From positions 1,555,299-1,619,298 of the forward strand of contig NZ_CP050192.1 of NCBI RefSeq assembly GCF_011694515.1: a stretch of 64,000 bases of DNA, read 5' to 3'. Positions 6,839 to 46,781 of this stretch are shown here, piece after piece. The notes below the pieces were generated by a model, which saw only the letters and a list, made by a program, of their open reading frames with translations, had not been told where the DNA came from and searched no databases. The number at the start of each line of letters is the position of its first letter. The stretch's first letter is position 1. The stretch comes from Mycobacterium sp. DL592. Lineage in GTDB: Bacteria; Actinomycetota; Actinomycetes; Mycobacteriales; Mycobacteriaceae. The position numbers and the translations under genes are program-made.

Positions 6839-6904
6839 AGTCGCGTCAGATCGTGTGACCTTAACGACCGGTGTGACGACTTATCGTCTTATGGATTTTT
6901 TCGA

Positions 6905-8005: not shown

Positions 8006-8030
8006 GGCTGCCCCCTCAAGCTGTGGCGTC

Positions 8031-8049
8031 GTCACGTGACGGACGTCAC
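8031..8049. promoter_or_regulatory. Palindromes upstream of the diiron gene
   Basis: GTCACGTGAC at 8031-8040 is a perfect 10-bp palindrome and is followed at once by GACGTC (8042-8047), within GACGTCAC. They lie 26-44 nt upstream of the diiron-protein start, where a repressor would sit. The shared half-site GTCAC/GTGAC occurs three times. No matching regulator gene is adjacent. Operator function is inference. Confidence 0.35.
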
Positions 8050-8128
8050 AATGCTTTCAGTGCCGGGGGGTGGGGTCAAGCCTGACGGGTACGTCAATTA
8101 GGGGCGTGGCATCGGAGCGCCACACGGG

Positions 8129-8947
8129 TTACTTGCGGATGAGGAATCCATTCGGCGCGAAGGTGAAGCCGAACTTGTTCTCCCGCTCGACGTCATGGGC
8201 GTAGTCGTCGGGAAATTCGGCTTCGTAGGCCTCGATGGCTTCATACGGTCCCGGGCCCCAGCCGGGGAGGACCGGGTGACCGTTGACGATCGAGTCCTCG
8301 ACCAATAGGTAGTCACCCGAGGACAGCAGTGGGCGAAGGAGTTTCATCTCGCCGAGGACATGGTCCTTGGTGTGGTCGCTGTCCAGGATGGCGAAGATGG
8401 GGCCGGGGTACTCGCGCTTGAGGCGCTCGATCTGCTCGGCAATTGCCGGATCCGTCGACGACGACTCGACGAACAGGATGTCCGGGTCCTTGCGTGCGGC
8501 AGGATCGAGCGGTTTGTGGGTGATGTCCACGGACAGCACCTTGAACGGCCGGCCGATCTGACGCATCACGCTGGCAAAGAAAAGTGCTGAGCCACCTTGG
8601 TTGCTACCAAACTCGATCACGAGGGAAGGTTTCAGCTCACACAGAATCTCTTGGTAGTTCCACATGTCGCTGACGGACTTCCAGGTGGTCACACCCATCC
8701 ATGAGGTATTCCGCCAGACGAACGTGTTGTAGTACCACTTGTTGTATTCCTCGGGCTCTGCGCCCGTCGGCTGATACACGAAGACCGCCAGGGCTGACCG
8801 GGCGACGCTCCGCACCGACGCCAACGTCGTTTTGAGCACGTTCGGCCGCGGACTGCTGGTCCTGTTTAGCACTGTCAACTGCGAATTCCTCCCCGGGAAG
8901 CACGGTTTCAGGCAACTGGTCGGCCTGTACGTCCTGATTCCTACCAT
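8129..8947 (-). CDS. CmcI / rhamnosyl O-methyltransferase-family protein
   Basis: Up to 272 residues. The core matches the CmcI family: NTFVWRNTSWMGVTTWKS near the front, then the SAM-binding strand and loop LVIEFGSNQGGSALFFASVM, VLSVDITHKP, FAILDSDHTKDHVLGEMKLL and LLVEDSIVNGHPV. The family holds cephalosporin 7-hydroxylase-type proteins and mycobacterial rhamnosyl O-methyltransferases that methylate sugars of phenolic glycolipids and glycopeptidolipids. Next to a membrane acyltransferase and an SGNH hydrolase, glycan or glycolipid methylation is the likely role. The start is uncertain: the ATG at 8947 has no ribosome site, and GTGs at ~8872 and ~8839 are possible. Confidence 0.8.
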   Translation of the reverse strand: MVGIRTYRPTSCLKPCFPGRNSQLTVLNRTSSPRPNVLKTTLASVRSVARSALAVFVYQPTGAEPEEYNKWYYNTFVWRNTSWMGVTTWKSVSDMWNYQEILCELKPSLVIEFGSNQGGSALFFASVMRQIGRPFKVLSVDITHKPLDPAARKDPDILFVESSSTDPAIAEQIERLKREYPGPIFAILDSDHTKDHVLGEMKLLRPLLSSGDYLLVEDSIVNGHPVLPGWGPGPYEAIEAYEAEFPDDYAHDVERENKFGFTFAPNGFLIRK

Positions 8948-9158
8948 ACGGCCATATTGTGCCCTTCATTGTTTGCCAGTTCTGTCCAAACTGGATAAAT
9001 GGCAAGCCGGGTTCGAGCCGCATTGCGGATCTCAGGTGGGGTTGGGAGTCACGCAGCCCGAGGAGTTGCGCAGCGCGCTGCCATGCCGCCTCGTAGCCCG
9101 ACATCCTCGCGGGAATCGGCCACTTGGCTTTTCGGGCGTGGCGGGGCGAGTTTCTGCG

Positions 9159-11318
9159 TCAGTAGACGCCCGCGCTTTTCAGTGATTCGTCGATCACCGG
9201 TGTTATGCGTTTCGCGTAGGGCGGCGACATGTGTGCCCAGTCGGCTTTGGTGATAATGGTGCCGACGAAGCTGGGGCAGCGTCCCTCAACGCAGAACCAC
9301 GGTCGGGAATCCACCCATGTTCCGCCGAGAGCCGCGGCGAGATCCTGTTCGGCCTCAGCCATCTGATTCCAGTCTTTCAGGACTTTGCCTATGCAGTCGG
9401 GAGGCTTATTCGCTGCCACTCCATAGCATTTGCTCATGACGATGTCGGCTGGTGGTGGAGCGAGGAATACAATTTTCTTAACGCTTCCCCGGAACGAATC
9501 AATGAACGTCCGCATCGATTTAGCCCACTCCTGGGCCGTGATGTTTCGGTCAGTTCCAGCGATCTGTTTCGCGCCGTAGGAGTGGGAGATGAACACGACG
9601 TCGGGTTTGTTTGCGTTGATGTAGTCCACCGCGCGCTTTTTGCGTGCTGGGCAGGCGTCGGCCAGTTTCTCGTCTTTCCCGGTGATGGCCACGTCAATGA
9701 AATAGCAGAAGAATTCAGCTTCGTTGTGCACCTGGAGTTGGCTACCGGTGGTGTTGGCGATGTCATGCAGCGGGCCTAGATAGGACATGGCGATGGAGTC
9801 GCCGATTAACACGGCATGAGTGTGCGCGGCAGGGTTGCCCCATGTGCAGGGCTTGTCGGATGTCGCTGCCCCGCAAGCCTTCACGTCGGCTTCAACAATG
9901 TCGCCATTGATGATGGTGTCAGCGGGTGGGGCGAACTGCGGCCACTGCTCGGCCTTCAACGCGGCGAGGATGTCACCTTGCAGCGCAGTCGCCGAAGGCC
10001 CAAGCTGATGGCCACCAGATTGGGTGAGTGGGTTGTCGTTGATCGCTAGATCTGGTGGTGCGGCCGATGGTTTCGCCGGCTGCATCACGATTGCGAGCAC
10101 TGCCACCGTCAGTAGGCCCATCGCGGCGGCCATCATCTTCTGGCTGAATCGTGTCGGGCTGTAGCGGCCCCGTCTGACATCCTTGAATGTTTGCCGGATT
10201 TTCGCTGAATCAATCCGTCGCAGAGGGTTTTCCACGCAGTGGTATGAGGTGATCGCAAGCGCGAAGCTCAGCGCCACGACCACAACCGAGTAATAGGCGC
10301 CGGGCTCCATCAGCGAACCGACGAACACGATGATCGGCCAGTGGACCAGGTACAGCGAGTACGAGATGTCACCGATGTAGGTGCTGATCGGATTGCGCAG
10401 AAAGTCCTGGTAGCGGGGTTCCCGGCCGATACCGGCGGCTATCACCAATCCCGACCCGACAACCGGGAGCAGCGCCCACGGTGCGGGGAAGCCGACGGTC
10501 GCGTCGTGCAACAAGAACAGGCTGGCGGCGATCAAAGCGAGCCCCATCCACGACAGGATCGGCTTGGCAGCGCTCGGGATCCTCGCCAACAGGCCCGTTG
10601 ATGTCGCCAGCAGTGCGCCGGCGCCAAGTTCCCAGATTCGGGCGAACGTGTCGAAGTACGCCCACGCCGGGGCTGTTGCGGTTTGGAAGATGGACCAGCC
10701 GAGAGATGCCGTCACCACCGCGGCCATGACCACGCCGGCGATGAACATCCGCTTGGAATGCGGCCACGCTTTCCGCGCTACCAACACCCCGATTGCAAAG
10801 ATGAGTGCGGGCCAGACGAAATAGAACTGTTCCTCGATCGACAGCGACCAGAAGTGGCGGATCGGGGACACGGCGACGCCCTGGCTGAAGTAGTCGGTGC
10901 CCAGAATTGCGAAGCGCCAGTTAGACATAAATATGAACGCGTAGAACGCGTCCAGCCCGACTTGTTTCGCCCGAAACGGCTGGAAGATAAACACAGCGGC
11001 CACGCAGGTTATTGCCAGGGTGACGGTCGCGGCCGGCACGATACGCCGAACCCGGTTCCAATAGAACGCGGTGAACGACACATTGCCGTCGGTCTCAGCC
11101 ATCCGCATCAGGTTGCCGGTGATCAAGAATCCGGAGATCACAAAGAACACGTCGACACCGATATAGCCGCCGTTGGGCCATCCCCAGAGATGGTCGGCAA
11201 ACACCGTCAATACCGCCACCATGCGTAGGCCCTGGATATCGAGGCGTTTGTGCGCTTGTCGGGCGCGCCGGCGATGGCGATGGGAAATCCGCTCATAGCG
11301 GTCCAGGACGGACACCAT
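9159..11318 (-). CDS. OafA/YrhL-type membrane acyltransferase fused to SGNH domain
   Basis: 719 residues. The N-terminal ~380 residues are an acyltransferase-3 domain with about 10 helices: the catalytic-His region is LTVFADHLWGWPNGGYIGVD then FFVISGFLITG, with the R-rich FYWNRVRRIVPA and HFWSLSIEEQFYFVWP blocks. A second helix-linked periplasmic part carries an SGNH esterase-like domain (AVLIGDSIAMSYLGPLHD as block I; ADWAHMSPPYA as the Asp/His block). Such fusions O-acylate cell-surface glycans or glycolipids, with the SGNH part completing transfer outside the membrane. Partner genes are the CmcI methyltransferase downstream and a secreted SGNH hydrolase upstream, all on the same strand. 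Confidence 0.9.
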   Translation of the reverse strand: MVSVLDRYERISHRHRRRARQAHKRLDIQGLRMVAVLTVFADHLWGWPNGGYIGVDVFFVISGFLITGNLMRMAETDGNVSFTAFYWNRVRRIVPAATVTLAITCVAAVFIFQPFRAKQVGLDAFYAFIFMSNWRFAILGTDYFSQGVAVSPIRHFWSLSIEEQFYFVWPALIFAIGVLVARKAWPHSKRMFIAGVVMAAVVTASLGWSIFQTATAPAWAYFDTFARIWELGAGALLATSTGLLARIPSAAKPILSWMGLALIAASLFLLHDATVGFPAPWALLPVVGSGLVIAAGIGREPRYQDFLRNPISTYIGDISYSLYLVHWPIIVFVGSLMEPGAYYSVVVVALSFALAITSYHCVENPLRRIDSAKIRQTFKDVRRGRYSPTRFSQKMMAAAMGLLTVAVLAIVMQPAKPSAAPPDLAINDNPLTQSGGHQLGPSATALQGDILAALKAEQWPQFAPPADTIINGDIVEADVKACGAATSDKPCTWGNPAAHTHAVLIGDSIAMSYLGPLHDIANTTGSQLQVHNEAEFFCYFIDVAITGKDEKLADACPARKKRAVDYINANKPDVVFISHSYGAKQIAGTDRNITAQEWAKSMRTFIDSFRGSVKKIVFLAPPPADIVMSKCYGVAANKPPDCIGKVLKDWNQMAEAEQDLAAALGGTWVDSRPWFCVEGRCPSFVGTIITKADWAHMSPPYAKRITPVIDESLKSAGVY

Positions 11319-11355
11319 AAATACCCCCTACCTTGGAAACCCGCCGCCAAAACTA

Positions 11356-12300
11356 TCAGGGCTTTGTTGAATATTCAGATTTCACGATTAAGGCGAGATG
11401 GTGTCCGATAGCCGTGTATGCAGCCTGTGTGAGGTGAGCGCCGTCCACCCGGAGTGAAGGCGGAACTTCACCGGCCGCGATCGCTCTCGTGTCGTCCGCG
11501 GTGGGGGTGATGCCCGCCGCGGTAAGCCCATCCGACCCCAGCCAGCCCTGCAGGTCCACAAACTTTCTGCCGTAGGCGGCTTTGAGCTCGGCGGTGGTCT
11601 CCGGTGTGGCGCCGACGATCAGGAATCGTTTGGGGTCGGGGACCCACTTCACCATTGCCGCGATATCCCGCACAATCGCCGCCGGCTGGGCGCTGTTGTT
11701 GGTGCCCGCCCAGATGATCTGGATGCAGTCTCGGTAGCCGTCGCTCTCGTCGCCGCTGAAGGCCGTGCCAGGGGGGACCTGGCGGTTCGTGCCAGGTGCG
11801 GTGTCCGGTGTGAAGGAGAAACTCTCGGCGCCCGCATCCAAGTCGTGGATCAGGGTGCCTGGGATATCACCGAGGGTGCCGTGCATCTTCAACTCCCCGG
11901 CCTGCTGATATTGGCTCCACCCGTCCTTCGGGCTGATGTCGACCACCTGGGAAGCGGCGGTGGTTCCCTCCGGCAGCTGGTTGCCGGCCAAAGTCACCGT
12001 TGGCTTCAGCCCGCCTTGGCGGACCGCTATCTCCGCTGATCCCTGCGACATCGCACCGAAGTTCTTCGTCTCCACCCCAAGATCCGTGCCGAGGGTTTGC
12101 AGCCACGTCGGATCGGCCTGGGTCCACTGGTCCCCGGTCTTCGTCAACGAGTAGGTCAGCGAGTCGCCCCAACCCACAACCTCACCGTGGCTGCAGGTCG
12201 CCCCCTGGGCCGGTGCTGAGCAGCACACGAGCGCGTTGCATAGCAGCGCGAGGACGGCAGCGATCCGCAGGCTGGGGTTCACGGCGGCTAGCGTAGCCAA
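11356..12300 (-). CDS. Secreted SGNH/GDSL-type hydrolase
   Basis: 314 residues with a Sec signal peptide (RIAAVLALLCNALVCCSAPAQGA). The SGNH block I is VVGWGDSLTYSLTKTGDQW, an IIWAGTNNSA stretch fits the oxyanion Asn block, and the catalytic DGAHLTQAAYTAIGHHL block lies near the C-terminus. Members are extracellular esterases or lipases acting on acylated glycans and lipids. Beside the acyltransferase-SGNH gene it may remove or edit acyl groups on the same polymer (inference). The start may instead be the GTG six codons in (VNPSLRIA), which gives a more typical signal peptide. Confidence 0.82.
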   Translation of the reverse strand: MATLAAVNPSLRIAAVLALLCNALVCCSAPAQGATCSHGEVVGWGDSLTYSLTKTGDQWTQADPTWLQTLGTDLGVETKNFGAMSQGSAEIAVRQGGLKPTVTLAGNQLPEGTTAASQVVDISPKDGWSQYQQAGELKMHGTLGDIPGTLIHDLDAGAESFSFTPDTAPGTNRQVPPGTAFSGDESDGYRDCIQIIWAGTNNSAQPAAIVRDIAAMVKWVPDPKRFLIVGATPETTAELKAAYGRKFVDLQGWLGSDGLTAAGITPTADDTRAIAAGEVPPSLRVDGAHLTQAAYTAIGHHLALIVKSEYSTKP

Positions 12301-12364
12301 CGCAACTCACCTGTACAGATCTCCGGCGGCACCACCGCACCATTGCCGATGAACACAAGATGGG

Positions 12365-12396
12365 CAAAAAGAGAGGGTGGCAAAATGCCACCCTCT
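12365..12396 (-). terminator. Intrinsic terminator after tRNA-Lys
   Basis: A perfect 11-bp stem (AGAGGGTGGCA with TGCCACCCTCT) with a 3-nt loop, followed in the minus direction by a run of five T. It lies 5 nt beyond the tRNA 3' end, so it ends the tRNA-Lys transcript. Confidence 0.9.
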
Positions 12397-12401
12397 ACCT
12401 G

Positions 12402-12474
<73 letters not shown>

Positions 12475-12641
12475 GTGAACTGCGTCGATGACTTTAACAG
12501 GCCACCCGCCGTAGTGAGAAATCCCCTCGAAGACGGCCAGATTGCCGTCGTGACGCCGCTGACCTGTGCGCTCGCCACCACTGTGCGGCTGCCCTTAGAC
12601 TGGGGATTCCCAGCATTTACACAGCTAGTGAGGTAGTCCCG

Positions 12642-13862
12642 GTGATGAGGCAGGTCGGCTCGGCAACCCGGCAACGGTCGCGAGTTCGGCTGGCGGTGCT
12701 GGCTCTCATCCCCGCTCTGCTGTTCGTCCTGAGCGCATGCGGCAGCGATCCGGCGCCGGCGCCGGTCAAGGTGATCGCCGACAAGGGCACGCCCTACGGC
12801 GACCTCCTCATCCCTCAGTTGGCGGCCTCGGTCAAGGACGGAGCTGTCGACGTCCCCGTCGACAAGCCGGTCACCATCACAGCCACCGGCGGCGTACTGG
12901 GTTCGGTGACGATGGTCAACGACGCGGGCAGCGAAGTGGCCGGCCAGCTCAGTCCGGACGGCGTGACGTGGAAGACCACCGAGCCGCTGGGCTACAACAA
13001 GAGCTACACCCTCAGCGCGCGCTCGCTCGGCCTCGGCGGCGTCACCACCGAAAAGCTCACCTTCGAGACGCAGTCGCCGGAGAACCTGACGATGCCCTAC
13101 CTGCTGCCCGGTGACGGCGAGGTCGTGGGTGTGGGTCAGCCGATCGCGGTGCGGTTCGACGAGAACATTCCCAGTCGGGTCGCCGCCGAGCGCGCGATCA
13201 AGGTGACCACCGACCCGCCCGTCGAGGGCGCGTTCTACTGGCTGAACAACCGTGAAGTACGTTGGCGCCCAGAGAATTACTGGAAGCCGGGCACCAAGAT
13301 CGACGTCGCGGTCAACACCTACGGTGTGGATCTCGGTGACGGTCTGTTCGGCCAGGAGAACCTGAAATCGCACTTCACTATCGGCGACGAGGTGATCGCG
13401 ACCGCCGACGACAACACCAAGACCCTGACGATCCGCCAGAACGGCGAGGTCATCAAGACGATGCCGATCTCGATGGGCAAGAACAGCACGCCGACCAACA
13501 ACGGCGTCTACATCATCGGTGACCACTTCTCGCACATGATCATGGACTCGTCGACCTACGGTGTTCCGTCCAACTCGCCCAACGGATATCGCACCGAGGT
13601 CGACTTCGCCACCCAGATGTCCTACAGCGGCATCTACGTGCACTCCGCGCCATGGTCGGTCGGCAGCCAGGGCTACTCCAACGTCAGCCACGGCTGCCTC
13701 AACGTCAGCCCGAGTAACGCGCAGTGGTTCTTCAACAACACCAAGCGCGGCGACATCGTCGAAGTCCGCAACACCGTCGGCTCGACGTTGCCGGGTACCG
13801 ACGGCCTCGGCGACTGGAACATCCCCTGGAAGCAGTGGAAAACCGGCAACGCCAACGCGTGA
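12642..13862 (+). CDS. ldtB: L,D-transpeptidase, LdtMt2/LppS orthologue (lipoprotein)
   Basis: 406 residues, the usual LdtMt2 length. It makes 3->3 cross-links in peptidoglycan and is the carbapenem-sensitive transpeptidase of mycobacteria. A lipoprotein signal with lipobox LSAC at residues ~29-32 is followed by an Ala/Pro linker. Two Ig-like (BIg) domains come next (~45-255), then the YkuD catalytic domain with the [10 protein letters not shown]...SHGCLNVSP motif holding the nucleophilic Cys and catalytic His, and a C-terminal cap ending [10 protein letters not shown]. The start is GTG 12642 or ATG 12645, with GAGGT at 12630-12634. Its place between the Rv2520c-like gene and orn fits Rv2518c. 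Confidence 0.95.
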
Positions 13863-13938
13863 CTTGCGAGACTAAGCGCTCCTCGCCCTGATGGGTGTTG
13901 CGCATCGGGGATAGTGGCGTGGTCAGGACTAAGCACAC

Positions 13939-16302
13939 TCATCGGCGGGGTTCAGCAGCACCCGCCGCGGCCTGGTTGCAGTCCTTCATCTGCCCGAAAA
14001 CATCTCGGCTCGCACCGATTTCGTCATTCCGTCTCGGCGCTGATTCACTCAACCCGATCCGATCATGCAACCTGACAAGGTGTTTGGGCGCCCACCAATT
14101 CGTCTTGCCCATCAGATGCATCAATGCCGGGACGAGGATGGTTCGGATGATTGTCGCGTCAACCAAGATAGCGAGTGTCAGCCCGACACCGAACATCCGC
14201 ATGAACGACACGTCTGCCGCGGCCAACGCGGCGAATGAAATAGACATGATGACTGCGGCCGCGGTGATGACCCGTCCGGTCCGCGCCAGCCCCAGCGCCA
14301 CACTTTCGTCGTTCGCCGCCGGCGTCTGGTCGGAGGCCAGCCAGTACTCCCGGATCCGCGAAACGAGGAATACCTCATAGTCCATCGAGATCCCGAATGC
14401 GATGCAGAACAACAAAACTGGCATCGCCGCCGACAGCGTTCCAGTGGCGGTGGTGCCGAAGCCGCCCAGATGGCCCTCTTGAAAAAACCATACGATCGCG
14501 CCGAAGGCGGCGGTCAGAGACACGACGTTGAGCAGTATCGCTTTGAGCGGTATCACCACACTGCCCGACAGCAGGAACAGCAGAACGAACGTGACTGCAC
14601 CGATGAGGCCAAGTACGAGTGGCAGCCGTGACGTGACCGCGTCGCCGTTGTCGCGATTGGTCTGGGCATCCCCGGTCAGAACCACTCTCGTCCCGCCCGG
14701 CGTCGGCACCTGGTGGAGCTGGTCGAGCTGACGGTTGGAGGCCGCCGAGTACAGCGGGGCGCTACTCGCGACGGTCAGGAACGCGCTGCCGTCGGCCACT
14801 CCGGTGGGTCCGGTTGCCGGACCGACCAAGGTTCCGCCGGCGAACGCACCTGCGGGCGCCGAGACCGACAACACGTTTGGCACTTGAGACAGCCGTGCCG
14901 CGTAATCTGCCAGTTCCTGATCGCCGACCCGCGCGGCATCGCGGATCACGACAGTCACGTTGTCCGCCACGTCCATGGCGAAGTCGTCCCGGATCCGGTC
15001 GCCGACCTGCCGCGCCGAAGCGGTCGTCGCCAGTACCCGATCGTCGGGCGAGCCCCACTTGAGCCCGAGAAACGGCGTGCCGGCCAGCACGAGAACGGCG
15101 ACGACGACAATGGTGATCGGCACCGAATGCCGAATGACCACATTGGCCGATCGAAACCAGAACGAGTCTTCGACTGCCGGATCGGGGCAGGAGCGGTCTG
15201 GGATGCGATGGCGGCCGCAGCGAACCATCGCCGGCGGGAGCGCAGTTCGTTTGCGGGAACGCCAGGTGAGCCGCCTGAGGTCCAACGCATCCAGCCGCGG
15301 CCCGAAGACGACGATCGCCGCGGGAGTCACCACGATGGCCGCGAGCGCGGCGAAGGACACCACCGCAACTCCGGCGTAGGCGAACGACTTCAGGAAGTAC
15401 ATCGGAAACAGTGCCATTGGCAGCATCGCCAGTCCGACCGTGACGGCAGAGAACACCACAGTCCGGCCACTGGTCACCATGGTGCGAACCAATGCGGTGT
15501 CACGCTCTTCGCCGGCAGCCAGCTCGTCACGGAATCGGCTCACCAGCAGGAGGGTGTAGTCGATCGCTAGAGCAAGCCCCATAGCCACGCTGAGATTCAG
15601 CGCAAAGATCGATACATCGGTGAATGAAGCAACGGCCCGCAACACGGCCATCGTTCCGACGATCGCCAGGATGCCGACCATCAACGGCACCGCCGCGCAC
15701 GGCAGACCGCCGAAGACCCAGACCAACACCAGGAAGCTCAGCGGAATGGCGATCGCCTCCATGCTGAGCAGATCATGCTCCGTTTGGCGGCTTATCTGTG
15801 CGTAGACCGCAGCGGGTCCGCCGAACCTCACCGTGACGCCATCTCGGTCCTGCGTCAGCTCCTCATCGAGAGTTTCCGCGTACCGCTGCGCCGCATTGTC
15901 GTCGCCGGTGATACCAGCGATGATCAGGCCGGTCTTGCCGTCTTTGCTGATCAGCGAACCGGCCGCGTCGGAGGACACCGTCCACGGTGAGGTCACGTCG
16001 GCCACGTGGGGGGACTGTTCCAACTTCGCCACAATGTCCGCGCCCGCGGCGCGGGCGGTGTCACTTTGGACACCGCGATCAGAGGTCACAGCGATGAGGA
16101 CCTTCATGTCGCCTTGATGGAACCTGTCGGCGAGCAGCCCGTCGGCTTCGGAGGATTCCGAGGAGGGGTCGTCGAAGCCTCCAGCGGAGAGGGCCTTTCC
16201 GACGGGAATCCCGAAGATCGCTGCGACGATGGCTAACGTCACTGCTGCCAGCAACACCCGCCGGGGAGCTGCGATCGCCAGTCGGGCAATGCGGTGCAAC
16301 AC
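13939..16302 (-). CDS. MmpL-family RND lipid transporter
   Basis: 787 residues, with the two-fold RND layout of MMPL proteins: helix 1, a periplasmic porter loop (~40-180), a five-to-six-helix block (~185-345), a cytoplasmic linker, helix 7, a second porter loop (~430-555) and a last helix block. Proton-relay-type motifs are seen in AMGLALAIDYTLLLVSRFRD and the paired CIAFGISMDYEVFLVSRIRE. Mycobacterial MmpL proteins export cell-envelope lipids. No MmpS partner or lipid-synthesis gene is adjacent, so the cargo is unknown. The start codon is GTG at 16300-16302, or TTG three bases on; both are very close to a GAGG box. Confidence 0.9.
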   Translation of the reverse strand: MLHRIARLAIAAPRRVLLAAVTLAIVAAIFGIPVGKALSAGGFDDPSSESSEADGLLADRFHQGDMKVLIAVTSDRGVQSDTARAAGADIVAKLEQSPHVADVTSPWTVSSDAAGSLISKDGKTGLIIAGITGDDNAAQRYAETLDEELTQDRDGVTVRFGGPAAVYAQISRQTEHDLLSMEAIAIPLSFLVLVWVFGGLPCAAVPLMVGILAIVGTMAVLRAVASFTDVSIFALNLSVAMGLALAIDYTLLLVSRFRDELAAGEERDTALVRTMVTSGRTVVFSAVTVGLAMLPMALFPMYFLKSFAYAGVAVVSFAALAAIVVTPAAIVVFGPRLDALDLRRLTWRSRKRTALPPAMVRCGRHRIPDRSCPDPAVEDSFWFRSANVVIRHSVPITIVVVAVLVLAGTPFLGLKWGSPDDRVLATTASARQVGDRIRDDFAMDVADNVTVVIRDAARVGDQELADYAARLSQVPNVLSVSAPAGAFAGGTLVGPATGPTGVADGSAFLTVASSAPLYSAASNRQLDQLHQVPTPGGTRVVLTGDAQTNRDNGDAVTSRLPLVLGLIGAVTFVLLFLLSGSVVIPLKAILLNVVSLTAAFGAIVWFFQEGHLGGFGTTATGTLSAAMPVLLFCIAFGISMDYEVFLVSRIREYWLASDQTPAANDESVALGLARTGRVITAAAVIMSISFAALAAADVSFMRMFGVGLTLAILVDATIIRTILVPALMHLMGKTNWWAPKHLVRLHDRIGLSESAPRRNDEIGASRDVFGQMKDCNQAAAGAAEPRR

Positions 16303-16570
16303 CTCGCAGACCCTTTCGGTTTGAACCCGGCCAACGTATCAGTACTTCGCAGTGTTCCGAGGCTTATGCGAGGCGGCGCCCCCGGCGCTCACAGGCAGCC
16401 GCGGCTGGCCCCATCGCCGCTCAAGTGCGTTCTCCCGGAAGCTATTCCGCCGCAGCGGGTGGCCCACTCCGGGCAGGAGTTGCTTGGGACATGCTGGGAA
16501 CTCCCTGTGTTCAGCGGTGGTGCGCCGCTTCCGCACGGTGCTCGCGCCTGGAGCCTGAGACACTTCGGAC

Positions 16571-17425
16571 ATGCCATTGCCTCCCGGTCAATACGTCTTG
16601 CGCAAGCTGCCGCACATCACCGCGCTGTTCTGGGCGCAGAAGATCTTGGCCACCACACTGGGGGAGACGGCCGGCGACTACTTCTCCCAGACCCTGGGGT
16701 TGGGCACCCTTCTCTCCGCTGGGCTGCTGCTCGCCATCTTTCTTGTCGCGGTGACAATTCAGTTGCGCGCCAGCCGGTTTAATCCGGCGCTGTTCTGGAT
16801 CGTGGTGGTCCTCACCAGTACGGCAGGCACCACGATCTCGGACTACATCAACTACACGTCGCACCTCGGGCAGCTCGCCGGCGTGACGATCCTCGGCAGT
16901 GGACTCGCTGTGGTGATGCTGATCTGGTGGCGCAGCGGCCAGACCCTCAACGTCGAGAACGTCGCCACCCTCACCGGTGAGGTGCTGTTCTGGATCGCCG
17001 TCGTCTTCTCCAACAGCCTCGGCACCTCCACCGGCGACTACTTGGCCGGCGGCCTGGGTGCGGGCCTGCGACCCGCCGCACTGATGCTCACCGCGGCCAT
17101 GCTGGTGCTGTTGGCCGCGCACTACTTCACCAACATCAACACCATGCTGCTGTTCTGGATCGCCTTCATCCTCACTCGGCCCTGGGGCGCCGAGGTGGGG
17201 AACATCTTGAGCAGGAGCCACGATCGCGGCGGCCTGGGCTTGGGCAACGCTGGCGCCTCCGCGATCCTCATCGCCGCGTTGGTGGTGCTGGTGGTCTACC
17301 AAATCTTCGAGATCCGGCGCCATCCCCTGGCGCCGTTGCCGTTACCGATGAACCGCCGTACCGGGCAGCCGCAGCGCCCCAACGGTGCCGTCGTCACCGT
17401 CGCGGTGGACCGCCCGACGGTGTAG
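16571..17425 (+). CDS. COG4705-type membrane protein with four internal repeats
   Basis: 284 residues and about eight membrane segments. The protein is built from four repeats of ~60 residues, each starting with an FW(A/I) segment and a (S/T)xxG..xxD(Y/I) turn: FWAQKILATTLGETAGDY, FWIVVVLTSTAGTTISDY, FWIAVVFSNSLGTSTGDY, and FWIAFILTRPWGAEVGNI, where the last has lost the Asp-Tyr. This matches an uncharacterised bacterial membrane family (COG4705/YncC-like as I remember it). Repeated intramembrane Asp/Thr suggests an ion or small-solute channel or transporter (inference). It stands alone between the MmpL gene and tRNA-His. Confidence 0.75.
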   Translation: MPLPPGQYVLRKLPHITALFWAQKILATTLGETAGDYFSQTLGLGTLLSAGLLLAIFLVAVTIQLRASRFNPALFWIVVVLTSTAGTTISDYINYTSHLGQLAGVTILGSGLAVVMLIWWRSGQTLNVENVATLTGEVLFWIAVVFSNSLGTSTGDYLAGGLGAGLRPAALMLTAAMLVLLAAHYFTNINTMLLFWIAFILTRPWGAEVGNILSRSHDRGGLGLGNAGASAILIAALVVLVVYQIFEIRRHPLAPLPLPMNRRTGQPQRPNGAVVTVAVDRPTV

Positions 17426-41780: not shown

Positions 41781-42440
41781 ATGCCCACGATCGTTGCAGA
41801 GCCTTTTCCCCTGAACTTCGATGTGGACAGCACAGCGCTGGTCATCATCGACATGCAACGGGATTTCGTGTTGCCCGGCGGCTTCGGTGAGGCGCTCGGC
41901 AACGACACCTCTCTGCTGCTGGCCGCCGTCGAGCCGATTCAGCGGGTACTCAACCGTGCGCGCGAGATCGGCATGTTCGTCGTCCACACCCGAGAGGGAC
42001 ACCGTCCCGACCTGTCCGACTGTCCCTCGGCGAAACTCCACCGCGGCGGGCAGACCTTCATCGGTGAGCCCGGGCCGATGGGCCGCATCCTGATCCGCGG
42101 CGAGCAGGGCCACGACATCATCGACCAGCTGTACCCGATCGAGGGTGAGCCGGTCATCGACAAACCCGGCAAGGGCACCTTCCACGCCACCGACTTCGGC
42201 CAGATCCTGTCCGATCGCGGCATCAAGACCCTGGTGGTGTGCGGGGTGACCACCGAGGTGTGCGTGCACACCACCGTCCGCGAGGCCAACGATCGCGGCT
42301 ACGAATGTGTGGTGCTGTCCGACGGGGTGGCGTCCTACTTCCCGGTGTTCCAGCGCGTCGCCCTGGACATGATCAAGGCCCAGGGCGGCATCTTCGGCTG
42401 GGTCTCGGACTCCGAGCGTTTCCTGGCCGCGGTGTCCTAG
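41781..42440 (+). CDS. Isochorismatase-fold cysteine hydrolase, biuret-hydrolase-like
   Basis: 219 residues. Asp-Lys-Cys triad: D24 (VIIDMQRDF), K128 (IDKPGKGTF) and C161 (VTTEVCVHTT). The loop HTREGHRPDL and the blocks GPMGRILIRGEQGHDII and REANDRGYECVVLSDG closely resemble biuret hydrolase (BiuH/TrzF), which cleaves biuret to allophanate and ammonia, and less closely RutB-type ureidoacrylate hydrolases. Start ATG 41781 with AGAAGGGA at 41768-41774. First gene of a four-gene operon with FdrA, DUF1116 and carbamate kinase. The upstream gap to the divergent acyltransferase holds ATTG-N8-CAAT at ~41727, a possible operator. Substrate by family resemblance only. Confidence 0.85.
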   Translation: MPTIVAEPFPLNFDVDSTALVIIDMQRDFVLPGGFGEALGNDTSLLLAAVEPIQRVLNRAREIGMFVVHTREGHRPDLSDCPSAKLHRGGQTFIGEPGPMGRILIRGEQGHDIIDQLYPIEGEPVIDKPGKGTFHATDFGQILSDRGIKTLVVCGVTTEVCVHTTVREANDRGYECVVLSDGVASYFPVFQRVALDMIKAQGGIFGWVSDSERFLAAVS

Positions 42441-42445
42441 TCAGC

Positions 42446-44005
42446 ATGACCACGAACTCCCGGTTCTACCCCAACCTCTACAAGGACTCGGTGTCCTTGA
42501 TGACGGTGTCGGCGCAGCTGACGTCGGTACCGGGCATCGAAGCCGCCTCGGTCGCAATGGCCTCGGCCACCAACGTCGACAACCTCGCCCAGGCCGGCCT
42601 GGGCACCTTCGACGTCCGGCCCAACGACCTCGTCGTCGCGGTCTCAGGCACCGAGGACGCCTGCGCAGAAGCGCTGGCCCTGGCCGACTCATTGCTGTCT
42701 GCCGCACCCGGGGGCGGTGACGACACCGTTTCGGCCGCACCGGTCACCAGCATCCAGATGGCCGTCGCCAAGGACCCGGCGCTGAACCTGGCGCTGATCT
42801 CGGTACCCGGCGACTACGCCGCCGCCGAGGCGATGAAGGCGCTGCGGCTGGGCCTGGACGTGATGGTGTTCAGCGACAACGTCAGCCCGGAAGCGGAGCT
42901 GGCCCTCAAGCAATACGCCCGCGAGGTCGACCTGATGGTGATGGGCCCGGACTGCGGCACCTCGATCGTGAATGGCATCCCGCTCGGGTTCGCAAATGTG
43001 GTGCGGCGCGGCCCGATTGGTGTTGTCGGTGCCTCGGGCACGGGCACCCAGGAGGTCACCGTGCGGGTGCACCAGAACGGTTCGGGTATCTCGCAGGCAC
43101 TCGGCACCGGCGGCCACGACCTGGCCGACGCCATCGGCGGCATCTCCATGCTGTACGGCCTGGCCGCCCTCGACGGCGATCCCGGGACGTCGGTGATCGT
43201 GCTGGTCTCCAAACCACCGTCACCCGATGTCGCGGCCACTGTGCTGGCTGCCGCCGAAGCCAGCGACAAACCCGTCGTCGTCATCTTCCTCGGCGCCGAC
43301 CCGGCCTCGATCACCCGCAACGGTGTGTACGGCGCCGCCTATCTCGCGCAAGCCGCCGACATGGCCGTCGAACTGGCGCGCGGGCAGAAGCCGCAGAGCG
43401 GGGAGATCACCATCTCCAACGAGATGCGCCGGGTCCTGGGCGATCTGGCCGGCTCGATGGCGCCCAGCCAACGTTATGTGCGGGGCATCTTCTCCGGCGG
43501 CACCTTCTGCTACGAAGCCCAGTTGGTGCACCGCGCCCGCGGCATCTCCGCCTACTCCAACACCCCGGTCACGGGCAACAGCGCACTCGACGACATCCGG
43601 ATCAGCCTGCAGAACACCATCGTCGACATGGGCGACGACGAATTCACCCAGGGCAGACCGCATCCCATGATCGACCCGTCCCAGAAGGACGCCCGCATCC
43701 GCGACGAGGTGGCCGATCCGACGACGGCGGTCGTGCTGTTCGACGTGGTGCTCGGCTACGGATCCGCCGATGATCCGACCGCTGAACTGATTTCGGTCAT
43801 CGGCACGTCGAAGGCCAAGGCCCGCGCCGAAGGCCGCACCGTCGCGTTCATCGGCTACGTGTGCGGCACCGATCTGGATCCCCAGGACCGTGCAAAGGCC
43901 GTCGCCGGTCTCAAGGCGGCCGGTGTCCTGGTCGCGTCGAGCAATGCCGAGGCGGCCGTCTGGTCGGCGGCGCTGATCGCCGAGCGCGAAGGAGTCACCG
44001 CGTGA
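42446..44005 (+). CDS. fdrA: FdrA-family protein (transcarbamylase subunit, AllF-like)
   Basis: 519 residues from ATG 42446, 5 nt after the hydrolase stop. FdrA proteins are built like succinyl-CoA synthetase alpha: a CoA-binding-like N-terminal region (PNLYKDSVSLMTVSAQLTSV) and ligase halves with GPIGVVGASGTGTQEVTVRV and LVSKPPSPDVAATVLAAAEA. In E. coli, FdrA (AllF) with YlbE (AllG) and YlbF (AllH) forms oxamate carbamoyltransferase, which phosphorolyses oxalurate to oxamate and carbamoyl phosphate. Here an AllG-like partner follows (GTGA overlap), but no AllH (DUF2877) gene is seen. It probably forms the core of a carbamoyl-transfer enzyme for a ureide. Confidence 0.88.
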   Translation: MTTNSRFYPNLYKDSVSLMTVSAQLTSVPGIEAASVAMASATNVDNLAQAGLGTFDVRPNDLVVAVSGTEDACAEALALADSLLSAAPGGGDDTVSAAPVTSIQMAVAKDPALNLALISVPGDYAAAEAMKALRLGLDVMVFSDNVSPEAELALKQYAREVDLMVMGPDCGTSIVNGIPLGFANVVRRGPIGVVGASGTGTQEVTVRVHQNGSGISQALGTGGHDLADAIGGISMLYGLAALDGDPGTSVIVLVSKPPSPDVAATVLAAAEASDKPVVVIFLGADPASITRNGVYGAAYLAQAADMAVELARGQKPQSGEITISNEMRRVLGDLAGSMAPSQRYVRGIFSGGTFCYEAQLVHRARGISAYSNTPVTGNSALDDIRISLQNTIVDMGDDEFTQGRPHPMIDPSQKDARIRDEVADPTTAVVLFDVVLGYGSADDPTAELISVIGTSKAKARAEGRTVAFIGYVCGTDLDPQDRAKAVAGLKAAGVLVASSNAEAAVWSAALIAEREGVTA

Positions 44006-45411
44006 AGAAACTCTTCGACGAAGACATCAAGGTCGTCAACATCGGCCTGCAGGGCTTCGCCAACAACGTCACCGCGGCGGGCGGGCAGGTCACCAATCTC
44101 ACGTGGGCACCCCCGGCGGGAGCCGATGCGGCACTGGGCTGGACGCTGGCCACTCTGGTGGGCGACCCGCGTATCGAGGATGCCAACCGAACGGCTTACG
44201 ACCGCTACCTGGCTGCCCAACCCCGCCTGATCGACCTCGTCCGCGCCAGTGAAGCGATCGCCGGCCTGGGTCCGGGGGAGCGGCGCATTCTGCACTCGGG
44301 TCCGCCGATCGCGTGGCCAGACATGTGCGGACCGCAGCGCGGCGCGATCGCCGGGGCGATCCTCTACGAGGGCTGGGCCGACGATCTCGACGCGGCCGAG
44401 AAGCTCGCCGAAAGTGGTGCGGTGTCACTGGAACCGTGCCACGAGCACAGCGCGGTCGGGCCGATGGCCGGCATCATCAGCCCGTCGATGCCGGTGTGGG
44501 TGGTGGAGAACACCGCCGCCGGAAACCGGGCCTACTGCAACCTCAACGAGGGGCTGGGCAAGGTGCTGCGGTTCGGCGCCAACTCGCCCGAGGTCCTCGA
44601 CCGGTTGCGCTGGCTGGGCAGCGACTTCTTCGACACCATGCAGGTCGCGGTGCGCGGGCTGGTCGACCCGGACCTCAAACCCCTGATGGCACAGGCGCTG
44701 CACATGGGCGACGAACTGCACAACCGCAACGCCGCCGCCTCCGCGCTGCTGTTCAAGCGCCTCACGTTGTCGCTGATGGGCGCTGATCTGCCCTCGGATG
44801 CGGTGCGCCGCGCGTTGGAGTTCGTGGCCGGCAACGACCACTTCTTCCTCAACGTGTCGATGGCGGCCTGCAAGTCGATGACCGACGCCGCGGCCAATGT
44901 GCCGGGCAGCAGCATGGTGACGGTGATGGCACGCAACGGCGTGAACTTCGGCATCAAGCTCAGCGGCACCGGCGACCAGTGGTTCCAGGCACCAGCCAAT
45001 CCTGTTGACGGACTGTACTTCCCGGGCTACACCGTCGACGACGCGGCCGCCGACCTCGGCGACTCGGCAATCACCGAGACCAACGGCCTCGGTGGGTTTG
45101 CGATGGCGGCCTCGCCCGCGATCGTGCAGTTCGTCGGCGGCACCCCTGCGGATGCGACGGCCAACAGCCGCCGCATGCTGGCCATCACACTGGGCGCCAA
45201 CCCCGCATTCACGTTGCCGCCGTTGAACTTCGGCGGCACACCGGCGGGAATCGACGCCCGGCTGGTGGTCGACTCCGGAGTCCTGCCGATCATCAACACC
45301 GGAATCGCCCACCGCCAAGCCGGTGTCGGTCAGATCGGAGCGGGTATCACCACCGCGCCGATGGAATGCTTCAACGACGCACTGGCCGCGCTCGCGGCGG
45401 GACTGGAGTGA
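44002..45411 (+). CDS. DUF1116 (YlbE/AllG-like) protein
   Basis: 469 residues from a GTG overlapping the fdrA stop (GTGA). Starts VKKLFDEDIKVVNIGLQGFA and contains the family blocks TWAPPAGADAALGWTLATLV, GPPIAWPDMCGPQRGAIAGA, EPCHEHSAVGPMAGIISPSM, HMGDELHNRNAAASALLFKR and MARNGVNFGIKLSGTGDQWF. DUF1116 proteins are partners of FdrA; E. coli YlbE/AllG is one subunit of oxamate carbamoyltransferase. Conserved Cys/His in MCGPQ and CHEH may form the active site (inference). The fixed pairing with FdrA and carbamate kinase gives the pathway role: make carbamoyl phosphate. Confidence 0.88.
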   Translation: MKKLFDEDIKVVNIGLQGFANNVTAAGGQVTNLTWAPPAGADAALGWTLATLVGDPRIEDANRTAYDRYLAAQPRLIDLVRASEAIAGLGPGERRILHSGPPIAWPDMCGPQRGAIAGAILYEGWADDLDAAEKLAESGAVSLEPCHEHSAVGPMAGIISPSMPVWVVENTAAGNRAYCNLNEGLGKVLRFGANSPEVLDRLRWLGSDFFDTMQVAVRGLVDPDLKPLMAQALHMGDELHNRNAAASALLFKRLTLSLMGADLPSDAVRRALEFVAGNDHFFLNVSMAACKSMTDAAANVPGSSMVTVMARNGVNFGIKLSGTGDQWFQAPANPVDGLYFPGYTVDDAAADLGDSAITETNGLGGFAMAASPAIVQFVGGTPADATANSRRMLAITLGANPAFTLPPLNFGGTPAGIDARLVVDSGVLPIINTGIAHRQAGVGQIGAGITTAPMECFNDALAALAAGLE

Positions 45412-46781
45412 GCGTGGGAACCGCAATCGTCGCCTTCGGTGGCAATGCTCTGGTCACCGACGCCGAGCACGACTCCATCCCGCAGCAGTACGACACCGTC
45501 AGGCGGACCGTCCCACCCCTGATCGACATGGTCGAGCAGGGCTGGAAACTCGTTGTCTCCCATGGCAACGGACCCCAGGTCGGCTTCATCCTGCGCCGCT
45601 CGGAGCTGGCCTCCGACGAGGTCGACCCGGTGCCCGTCGACTACGCTGTCGCTGACACCCAGGGCGCGATCGGCTACATGTTCGTCAAGGCGCTGCGCAA
45701 TGAACTGGCCCGCAGGGGGTTGTCGCACCCGGTGGTGGCGGTCGTCACCCATTCGGTGGTCAGTCTCGACGATCCGGCCTTCGAGAACCCGACCAAGCCG
45801 GTCGGTTCGTTCCTCGACGAAGCCAAGGCCACGAAGATGGCTGCGGCGCTGGGGTGGACGATCGCCGAGGACGCCGGGCGGGGCTGGCGCCGCACCGTCG
45901 CATCGCCGCGGCCGACGGCGATCCTGGAGACCGATCTGATTCGTAAGCTCCTCGACGACGGGGCGATCGTGGTCGCGGTCGGCGGTGGCGGCATCCCGGT
46001 GAGCGTCTCGGCCGACGGGACGCTCACCGGCGTGGAAGCTGTGGTGGACAAGGACATTGCCTCGGGTCTACTCGCCCACGACCTGGCCGCGGATCTGTTG
46101 ATGATCCCGACCGGGGTGCCGCGCGTGGCGATCGGCTTCGGCACACCCGAGGAGAAGTGGCTCGACACCATCACCGTCGAACAAGCCCGGCAGTACATCG
46201 CCTCCGGCCAATTCGGCAAGGGGTCGATGGAACCAAAGGTCGAGGCCGTCGCCGACTTCGCCGCCACGACTCCCGGAGGCACCGGCATCATCGGGGCAGC
46301 CGAGGAGATCCCTGCGATCCTGGCCGGCACATCGGGCACCCGGATCGTCGGCGCAGCCGCAGCACCGCAGCCGGCGCGCAGCGGCTCGGGGGCCGTGCTG
46401 CTGGCGGTCAACGGCACCCTGATGCGCGGACTCAAACTCTCGCCCAACATGGCGGCCGCCGGTGCCACGTTCGTCCAGGAGACCACCACCGAACCGGTGT
46501 ACCGGATCTGGACCATCAACGACGACCACCCCGCCATGATCCGGGTCACCGACGGGTCGGGAGTGGCCGTCGCGGTCGAGGTGTGGTCGGTACCCGCCGC
46601 CGGGCTGGCCGGAATCTTGTTGAACGAGCCACCCGGGTTGTCGATCGGCAAAGTCAACCTCGCTGACGGGTCGACGGTTCTCGGTGTGCTCGGCGAGCCT
46701 GCTCTGGTCGAGGGTCAGCGGGAGATCAGCCGGCACGGCGGCTGGCGCGCCTATATCGCCGCGGAGGGCATCTCGTCCTGA
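45408..46781 (+). CDS. arcC: Carbamate kinase fused to allophanate-hydrolase C-terminal-like domain
   Basis: 457 residues from the GTG overlapping the DUF1116 stop (or GTG 45414). Residues ~1-315 are a full carbamate kinase (AIVAFGGNALVTDAEHDSIP; VVSHGNGPQVGFILRRSEL; AVGGGGIPV; VVDKDIASGLLAHDL; FGKGSMEPKVEAVADF), making ATP from carbamoyl phosphate and ADP. After a short Ala-rich linker, ~140 more residues (LLAVNGTLMRGLKLSPNMA, PVYRIWTINDDHP, VAVEVWSVPAAGLAGILL, SIGKVNLADGSTVLGVL, REISRHGGWRAYIA) resemble the C-terminal domain of allophanate hydrolase (AtzF). Ordinary carbamate kinases stop at ~310 residues. The fusion ties the operon to N-carboxy-urea-type chemistry. Confidence 0.88.
   Translation: MSVGTAIVAFGGNALVTDAEHDSIPQQYDTVRRTVPPLIDMVEQGWKLVVSHGNGPQVGFILRRSELASDEVDPVPVDYAVADTQGAIGYMFVKALRNELARRGLSHPVVAVVTHSVVSLDDPAFENPTKPVGSFLDEAKATKMAAALGWTIAEDAGRGWRRTVASPRPTAILETDLIRKLLDDGAIVVAVGGGGIPVSVSADGTLTGVEAVVDKDIASGLLAHDLAADLLMIPTGVPRVAIGFGTPEEKWLDTITVEQARQYIASGQFGKGSMEPKVEAVADFAATTPGGTGIIGAAEEIPAILAGTSGTRIVGAAAAPQPARSGSGAVLLAVNGTLMRGLKLSPNMAAAGATFVQETTTEPVYRIWTINDDHPAMIRVTDGSGVAVAVEVWSVPAAGLAGILLNEPPGLSIGKVNLADGSTVLGVLGEPALVEGQREISRHGGWRAYIAAEGISS

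What the first reader, a model, noticed from the sequence alone, without database searches (positions are those of the whole stretch)
41781..46781. Candidate ATP-yielding phosphorolytic pathway for biuret/allophanate or a related ureide
Seen: four genes with gaps of 5 nt or less or 4-nt overlaps encode a cysteine hydrolase with the D24/K128/C161 triad and biuret-hydrolase-like blocks, FdrA, DUF1116 and a carbamate kinase. Known: E. coli AllF/AllG/AllH phosphorolyse oxalurate to oxamate and carbamoyl phosphate, and carbamate kinase turns that into ATP; BiuH makes allophanate from biuret. Inference: allophanate (or a similar ureide) would be split by the FdrA-DUF1116 enzyme into carbamoyl phosphate plus carbamate, so nitrogen is released with gain of ATP rather than by the usual AtzF hydrolysis. 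AllH (DUF2877), allantoinase and ureidoglycolate genes are not in the window, so this is not a copy of the allantoin pathway.
Basis: partly seen in the sequence, partly recalled or inferred. Interest (0 to 1): 0.88.

Follow-up and report, generated by a model that had tools for sequence, protein, structure and literature searches.

The report
ATP-yielding triuret/biuret breakdown operon
Four neighbouring genes of an environmental mycobacterium look like an unrecognised route that gets ammonia and ATP out of small urea-derived molecules such as triuret or biuret, and relatives of the same gene set occur in E. coli and in nitrifying bacteria.

Summary

The set recurs as a unit in the window's genus, in other phyla, and in 1547 of 5426 complete E. 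coli genomes.

Phosphorolysis to carbamoyl phosphate and ATP is strengthened. Seven Nitrospira loci carry a triuret operon in which FdrA-DUF1116-kinase plus AH_C stand where Citrobacter has atzF. Four Nitrospira and ten genus genomes have no AtzF over cut-off (one other unit-bearing genome has). AllG of the ordered units is one clade, apart from the oxalurate enzyme.

The biuret part is not supported as stated. The hydrolase has 5 of 6 published residues that separate triuret hydrolase (TrtA) from biuret hydrolase and none of the latter's, and scores higher against TrtA, but does not fall in the tested TrtA's group.

Best reading: the hydrolase makes an N-carboxy ureide (1-carboxybiuret from triuret, less likely allophanate from biuret); AllF-AllG split it with phosphate; the kinase makes ATP; AH_C probably removes CO2. 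All reactions are inferred. New variant of a known kind.

The parts
41781..42440 (+). TrtA-type isochorismatase-fold cysteine hydrolase (219 aa); triad D24/K128/C161; proposed ureide deaminating step
   Evidence: PDB relatives; signature; tree
42446..44005 (+). AllF/FdrA homologue (519 aa), proposed transcarbamoylase subunit
   Evidence: (PDB 3dmy FdrA, 272 bits)
44002..45411 (+). AllG/DUF1116 homologue (469 aa, GTG start), proposed transcarbamoylase subunit; its N-terminal ~50 aa match the C-terminal tail of E. coli AllF
   Evidence: (PDB 3clq, 408 bits)
45408..46352 (+). Carbamate kinase domain of the fused kinase gene (GTG start at 45408)
   Evidence: PRK12352 334 bits over cut-off 266; TIGR00746 arcC 344 bits, just under cut-off 358
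46398..46760 (+). AH_C domain (PF21986, allophanate hydrolase C-terminal domain) at the C terminus of the kinase gene, which ends at 46781

Best explanation
A four-gene operon for taking nitrogen and ATP from a linear polyurea. (1) The TrtA-type hydrolase removes one ammonia and leaves an N-carboxy ureide: most likely 1-carboxybiuret from triuret, less likely allophanate from biuret. (2) The AllF-AllG pair, without AllH, transfers the terminal carbamoyl group to phosphate, as AllFGH does with oxalurate: 1-carboxybiuret + Pi gives carbamoyl phosphate + allophanate, and/or allophanate + Pi gives carbamoyl phosphate + carbamate. (3) Carbamate kinase turns carbamoyl phosphate + ADP into ATP + carbamate, which falls to NH3 and CO2. 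(4) The AH_C domain removes CO2 from an N-carboxylated intermediate. Shown by sequence: gene content, order, fusion, tree positions, and no match for AllH, for AtzF over cut-off or for a second BiuH/TrtA-family hydrolase in this genome. Inferred: every reaction; step 4 and the exact AllF-AllG substrate are the least certain.
For: AH_C is fused to the kinase; 118 of the 120 listed proteins (452 found, the window's own among the 120) are kinase-AH_C, and one is a clean hydrolase-AH_C fusion. Every unit hydrolase aligned has the TrtA-type residues at 35, 41, 160, 187 and 205. In 60 AllG loci the hydrolase occurs only where AH_C does (8/1/0/51, Fisher 3.5e-9, not corrected for kinship). E. coli CFT073 operon: hydrolase, DUF2877, FdrA, DUF1116, arcC, AH_C, cytosine permease. 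AllG of the ordered units is one clade (24 rows, support 97), next to the Nitrospira AllG (93), apart from E. coli AllG and YahG. Seven Nitrospira loci have F-G-K-BMP-permease-permease-biuH-ABC-trtA-AH_C where Citrobacter has atzF-BMP-permease-permease-formamidase-biuH-ABC-trtA. No AtzF over cut-off in 10 of 10 genus genomes or 4 of 4 Nitrospira genomes. Own genome: no AllH match, one AH_C, one hydrolase of this family at E 1e-10. E. coli AllFGH biochemistry: PMC11326118 (abstract).
Against: In the hydrolase tree the unit hydrolases (except those of G033/L088 and L161) lie on the other side of a branch (support 85) from both the tested Herbaspirillum TrtA and BiuH, and the TrtA-type residues may be ancestral. 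In G033 the AllG next to the hydrolase groups with E. coli AllG (92, long branches) and the second with YahG; the L161 AllG is outside the unit clade too. Nonomuraea (G588), with the unit, also has a full AtzF elsewhere (603 bits). E. coli oxamic transcarbamylase uses three subunits; AllH is missing here. If AH_C turned 1-carboxybiuret into biuret, a genome without BiuH would need AllF-AllG to act on biuret, which lacks a carboxylate. Unit AH_C differs from AH C-domains at many positions constant in it. 12 of 80 AH_C loci show no hydrolase, F, G, K or amidase. The kinase is just under the arcC equivalog cut-off. No transporter or regulator lies in the window's operon.
Confidence: 0.6

Rival explanations
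1. One reading: the hydrolase is a biuret hydrolase, its product allophanate is phosphorolysed by AllF-AllG to carbamoyl phosphate and carbamate, and the kinase makes ATP.
For: AH_C domain on the kinase; the active-site residues shared by BiuH and TrtA are all present; the Nitrospira operon, which does have BiuH, has F-G-K where Citrobacter has atzF; no BiuH-type hydrolase was found elsewhere in the genome.
Against: 0 of 6 BiuH-type residues; 226 bits to BiuH against 269 to TrtA; under the BiuH cut-off. In 6 Verrucomicrobia loci and one MAG labelled Proteobacteria (L140, L142, L143, L153, L164, L172, L181) hydrolases from the same side of the tree stand in one locus with a BiuH-type enzyme, where a second biuret hydrolase would be redundant.
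Confidence: 0.2
2. AH_C makes biuret from 1-carboxybiuret and AllF-AllG phosphorolyse biuret itself to carbamoyl phosphate and urea, which urease then splits.
For: AH_C follows the trtA match by 14-227 nt in 13 of the 13 Nitrospiraceae loci in which both were found and is fused to the hydrolase in L118/P0110; urease alpha is strong in 9 of 10 genus genomes searched.
Against: Biuret has no carboxylate, unlike oxalurate. Urease was not compared in genus genomes without the unit; G033, with two F-G pairs, also has a match just over cut-off (24.9 of 23 bits, frame with stops). Whether CFT073 has urease was not searched.
Confidence: 0.1
3. It is an oxalurate or allantoin pathway remnant (AllF-AllG-kinase plus an oxamate amidase).
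For: AllF-AllG homology and carbamate kinase; PMC12625717 reads the comammox genes so (passages); one AllG of the rearranged G033 cluster groups with E. coli AllG.
Against: AllG of the window and of the other ordered units is a separate clade from E. coli AllG; no AllH match in the genome; the recurring partners are a TrtA-type hydrolase and AH_C. E. coli AllC, AllD and AllE as queries gave one hit over 45 bits in 60 loci, an AllE relative (31% identity) in L058, which has no unit (the AllB query there was out of frame and tells nothing).
Confidence: 0.06
4. It is a pyrimidine route with a RutB-like ureidoacrylate hydrolase.
For: PMC12928451 reads the E. coli operon (its GR 29) so, with a CodB-like permease (passages); one search shows the permease.
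Against: RutB scores 108 bits against 269 for TrtA and differs at the compared positions; no rutA is named among the annotated features of the CFT073 stretch.
Confidence: 0.02
5. The hydrolase is a guanylurea hydrolase and AH_C decarboxylates carboxyguanidine.
For: Guanylurea hydrolases are in the same protein family and can be up to 65% identical to others in it (PMC9800807, passages).
Against: Untested: the GuuH record could not be fetched and no guanidine gene was used as a query. The recurring partners are those of triuret operons.
Confidence: 0.02

Closest known systems
E. coli AllFGH-AllK (oxamic transcarbamylase and catabolic carbamate kinase), PMC11326118 (abstract) and PMC9843812 (search listing only)
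   Same: AllF, AllG and a carbamate kinase; proposed phosphorolysis of a terminal ureido group and ATP from carbamoyl phosphate
   Different: no AllH here; own AllG clade; tied to a TrtA-type hydrolase and an AH_C domain; the AllF/AllG border is shifted by about 50 residues
Triuret pathway TrtA-(TrtB)-BiuH-AtzF (Herbaspirillum, PMC7948467, parts read; Citrobacter pK218-KPC)
   Same: TrtA-type hydrolase; AH_C domain related to the C-domain of AtzF
   Different: no BiuH and no AtzF amidase; AllF-AllG-kinase instead
Comammox Nitrospira biuH-trtA-allFGHK cluster (PMC12625717, passages)
   Same: same families side by side; sister AllG clade
   Different: has BiuH and an ABC transporter, AH_C separate; the authors report atzF collocated in their MAGs and read allFGHK as oxalurate use, while 4 of 4 Nitrospira genomes searched here have no AtzF over cut-off
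E. coli CFT073 operon / GR 29 of BEN2908 (PMC12928451, passages)
   Same: same five protein families; hydrolase 68% and AH_C 57% identical to the window's
   Different: has AllH and a cytosine-permease-like transporter; AH_C is a separate protein; read by its authors as Rut-like pyrimidine use

Membership tests
Triuret hydrolase (TrtA) | D24, K129, C162, E72, K132, Q202 active-site residues | tested here: met
   alignment; residues from PMC7948467 text
Triuret hydrolase (TrtA) | TrtA-type residues at F35, N41, A134, E160, Y187, I205 | tested here: inconclusive
   5 of 6 met; position 134 is T, neither TrtA's A nor BiuH's S; A134S was not deleterious in the paper
Triuret hydrolase (TrtA) | falls in the group of the tested Herbaspirillum enzyme | tested here: not met
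   other side of a branch of support 85 (quick tree, very long outgroup branch)
Triuret hydrolase (TrtA) | hydrolyses triuret, hardly biuret | not testable with these tools
   needs an assay
Biuret hydrolase (BiuH) | BiuH-type residues Y, Y, S, D, T, V at the same six positions (V at 205 taken) | tested here: not met
   0 of 6
Biuret hydrolase (BiuH) | NCBIfam NF050097 cut-off 370 bits | tested here: not met
   272.8 bits; the TrtA-type enzymes of CFT073 and Nitrospira L124 miss it too (279.8 and 252.4)
Oxamic transcarbamylase AllFGH | AllF and AllG subunits | tested here: met
Oxamic transcarbamylase AllFGH | AllH subunit | tested here: not met
   no PF11392 match in the genome
Oxamic transcarbamylase AllFGH | groups with E. 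coli AllG | tested here: not met
Carbamate kinase | profile over a curated cut-off | tested here: met
   PRK12352 334.4 over 266; TIGR00746 344.1 under 358.25
Allophanate hydrolase AtzF | amidase domain | tested here: not met
   not in the operon; genome-wide TIGR02713 best 177 bits against cut-off 511
Allophanate hydrolase AtzF | AH_C domain | tested here: met
   PF21986 E 3.6e-37, but with its own set of constant residues

The most novel reading that the evidence does not exclude
A complete phosphorolytic triuret pathway: one hydrolytic step, then one AllF-AllG enzyme that acts twice (1-carboxybiuret to allophanate, allophanate to carbamate), so that up to two ATP are gained per triuret without BiuH, AtzF or urease; it is spread over mycobacteria, over a quarter of complete E. 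coli genomes and, in a variant with BiuH, Nitrospira, and it uses AH_C as a new stand-alone N-carboxy-urea decarboxylase.
Probability: 0.3. Interest if true: 0.87.

Novelty: new variant of a known kind. Interest (0 to 1): 0.74.

Why it matters
The triuret and biuret routes described in the papers seen here end in hydrolysis by AtzF, with no energy gain. A phosphorolytic end would be a second way to use these compounds that yields ATP, and it would give a function to an operon whose DNA is found in 1547 of 5426 complete E. coli genomes, CFT073 and Nissle 1917 among them, and to the small AH_C proteins, one of which has a solved structure filed under another enzyme name (5c5z). Triuret occurs in human urine and in urea fertiliser (PMC7948467 abstract). 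It also offers a different reading of two recent annotations (oxalurate use in comammox, Rut-like in E. coli).

Tried and rejected
Oxalurate and Rut readings were considered and rejected on tree, score and residue evidence. Guanylurea hydrolase could not be compared. The AllG-AH_C 'fusion' P0079 is not used: its AllG part runs out of frame before AH_C (seen by eye). The ORF caller used a wrong AllG frame and merged genes; tblastn replaced it. The AllB query was a cut gene read out of frame and is worthless. The gene calls are rough. Structure prediction of the kinase-AH_C protein was tried twice and not accepted. No catalytic residues of AH_C could be sourced; the listing held no paper on them.

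Sampling: of 64 AllG places one is the window's own, two were not fetched (G176:C13, G033:C13) and two lie in one locus, giving 60 loci. One search kept 80 of 459 relatives. In the AllG tree 13 near-identical mycobacterial loci and rows with stops were left out, Nitrospira has 6 of 7 loci, and G033 (L088) and L161 were not labelled as units. Hydrolase rows under 500 nt, under 150 bits or with stops were left out. AllH was sought in the 80 loci only by tblastn, which is weak for that family. The and one search counts are not corrected for kinship.

Papers: passages of PMC12625717, PMC12928451, PMC7439467, PMC9800807, PMC5806882, PMC6219798; abstract of PMC11326118; passages and two of six parts of PMC7948467; others as search listings. 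That no paper proposes this pathway rests on searches of an open-licence library only.
Full report
The window lies in a single-contig genome of 5.10 Mb. The closest named homologues of the kinase's C-terminal part are from Mycobacterium and Mycolicibacterium.

Residues 331-451 of the kinase are an AH_C domain, the C-terminal part of allophanate hydrolase (PF21986, E 3.6e-37). It is the only AH_C found in the genome. Among homologues of that region, 118 of the 120 listed (452 found) are kinase-AH_C proteins, one (P0110, also locus L118) is a clean hydrolase-AH_C fusion, and one (P0079) is an out-of-frame artefact. In G033 an AH_C domain ends a 699-aa reading frame whose other part has no Pfam match and looks like a permease by eye. 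So AH_C has been joined to the kinase and to the hydrolase, which links it to both.

The block is a unit. Of 60 AllG loci fetched from relatives, 9 have AH_C and 8 the hydrolase; each hydrolase is in a locus with AH_C (8/1/0/51; Fisher 3.5e-9, not corrected for kinship). The one exception, L083, is cut at its contig end. Among 18 mycobacterial loci plus the window, an enoyl-CoA hydratase family gene is in the stretch held in 12 of 19, the acyltransferase family in 5 and a family whose window member is a GGDEF protein in 14, so the unit sits in much the same neighbourhood. A scan of 84,980 species genomes with AH_C gave 459 relatives; of the 80 kept, 32 have F, G and K, 29 of these with a TrtA-type hydrolase, 10 have an AtzE-like amidase, and none has both AllG and an amidase. 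Of the three F-G-K loci without a hydrolase two begin at a contig end; L178 has 2.1 kb upstream without one. Twelve of 80 show no hydrolase, F, G, K or amidase, which the model does not explain.

The same set is in E. coli CFT073: cysteine hydrolase, DUF2877, FdrA, DUF1116, ArcC, an 'allophanate hydrolase-related protein', cytosine permease, LysR. AH_C's best solved relative, 5c5z (150 bits), is, as I recall, that E. coli protein (c4763). DNA of this operon is in 1547 of 5426 complete E. coli genomes (1542 with at least 80% of it in one place), with 127 of 1616 places on plasmids; the set is also on an IncFIC E. coli plasmid and a Photobacterium plasmid.

The hydrolase is not a biuret hydrolase by the published criteria. 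PMC7948467 (parts read) names six positions that separate TrtA from BiuH. Of 88 aligned rows, 64 have the TrtA-type residues at 35, 41, 160, 187 and 205, 23 the BiuH type, and RutB neither; the window hydrolase and every unit hydrolase aligned are in the first set. Its best solved relative is TrtA (269 bits), then BiuH (226), then RutB (108). Against a simple transfer: in the tree most unit hydrolases (E. coli, Photobacterium, mycobacteria and others) and eight mostly Verrucomicrobial ones lie on one side of a branch of support 85, with BiuH, the tested TrtA and the Nitrospira, G033 and L161 enzymes on the other; the forks on the first side are partly open and the outgroup branch is very long. 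The residues may thus be ancestral. In seven loci, six of them Verrucomicrobia, an enzyme from the first side stands in one locus with a BiuH-type enzyme, which fits a triuret rather than a biuret role.

AllF-AllG. AllG of the ordered units is one clade (24 rows, support 97) across several phyla; its neighbour is the Nitrospira AllG (joint support 93), and E. coli AllG (oxalurate) and YahG lie elsewhere (quick tree with long branches). Exceptions: in the rearranged G033 cluster one AllG groups with E. coli AllG (92) and the other with YahG, and the L161 AllG is outside the clade. AllH has no match in 8 of the 10 genus genomes searched, the window's among them; in G041 it is at another locus, in G033 inside the cluster. 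E. coli and several other units have it. A two-subunit form is therefore predicted for the mycobacteria.

The strongest argument for phosphorolysis in place of AtzF is an operon swap. Citrobacter plasmid pK218-KPC has atzF-BMP-permease-permease-formamidase-hydrolase-ABC-hydrolase-GntR; its first hydrolase has BiuH-type, its second TrtA-type residues, with M at position 134. Seven Nitrospira loci have F-G-K-BMP-permease-permease-biuH-ABC-trtA-AH_C. The four Nitrospira genomes searched have no AtzF over cut-off, only AH_C (100-103 bits) and another amidase (239-244 bits), which is GatA in the two of four examined (656 and 658 bits, cut-off 481). PMC12625717 (passages) reports atzF in its comammox MAGs, says that trtB is missing and reads allFGHK as oxalurate use; whether its atzF is AH_C alone I could not see. 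Control against: Nonomuraea (G588), which has the unit (L173), also has a full AtzF elsewhere (603 bits), so the unit does not exclude AtzF everywhere. In the ten genus genomes no AtzF passes the cut-off (best 210 of 511 bits), and a BiuH-type hydrolase by identity (65%) is found only in G018.

From this I infer the scheme in Best explanation. No step is shown biochemically. The hydrolase step on triuret I put at about 0.65; phosphorolysis of a product of the hydrolase by AllF-AllG at about 0.7; ATP by the kinase at about 0.85; a decarboxylase role of AH_C at about 0.5. For AH_C the support is its family (the C-domain of allophanate hydrolase is thought to decarboxylate: recalled, not read here), its place 14-227 nt after the trtA match in 13 of 13 Nitrospiraceae loci, and its place 67-282 nt before an AtzE-like amidase match in 10 loci, none of which gave an AtzH match; Pseudomonas ADP has AtzH next to AtzE, and PMC6219798 (passages) proposes it as a decarboxylating enzyme. 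Against: unit AH_C differs from AH C-domains at many otherwise constant positions.

Whether urea is an end product is open: urease alpha is strong in 9 of 10 genus genomes; in G033, the one with two F-G pairs, the match is 24.9 bits, just over the 23-bit cut-off and in a frame with stops. Genus genomes without the unit were not compared.

Novelty: the parts are known; the combination and the pathway were not found in the eight searches named in Tried and rejected.

Noticed in passing
window 44002-44150 and L092 (E. coli AllF C terminus): The C-terminal ~50 residues of E. coli AllF resemble the N-terminal ~50 residues of unit AllG: the border between the two subunits has shifted.
   Followed up: partly
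L088 (G033) 4580-16678: A cluster with two F-G pairs, AllH, kinase, TrtA-type hydrolase, a 699-aa protein ending in AH_C (rest permease-like by eye) and a PucR-family regulator.
   Followed up: partly
L118 9308-10399: Hydrolase fused to AH_C in a Roseiarcus MAG, with no F-G-K match within the 10 kb held on each side.
   Followed up: partly
L108 9032-10396: In Mycobacterium sp. ENV421 kinase and AH_C are separate reading frames, unlike in the other mycobacterial loci compared; L086 may be split too.
   Followed up: no
L052-L060, L062-L067, L069-L071, L090, L091: Lone DUF1116/AllG relatives (38-44% identity) in the genus and its order, with no FdrA match in the stretch fetched; 19 of these 20 form one clade.
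   Followed up: no
L146, L150, L157, L159, L160, L165, L166, L175, L177, L180: AH_C just before an AtzE-like amidase in records labelled Rokubacteria or cyanobacteria, possibly in the place of AtzH.
   Followed up: partly
L143 7978-9609: A 543-aa reading frame without Pfam or NCBIfam match between trtA and a cupin gene of a Verrucomicrobia triuret cluster; it may not be a gene.
   Followed up: no
L208 11489-12448 (pADP-1): A carbamate kinase gene next to atzC on the atrazine plasmid pADP-1.
   Followed up: no
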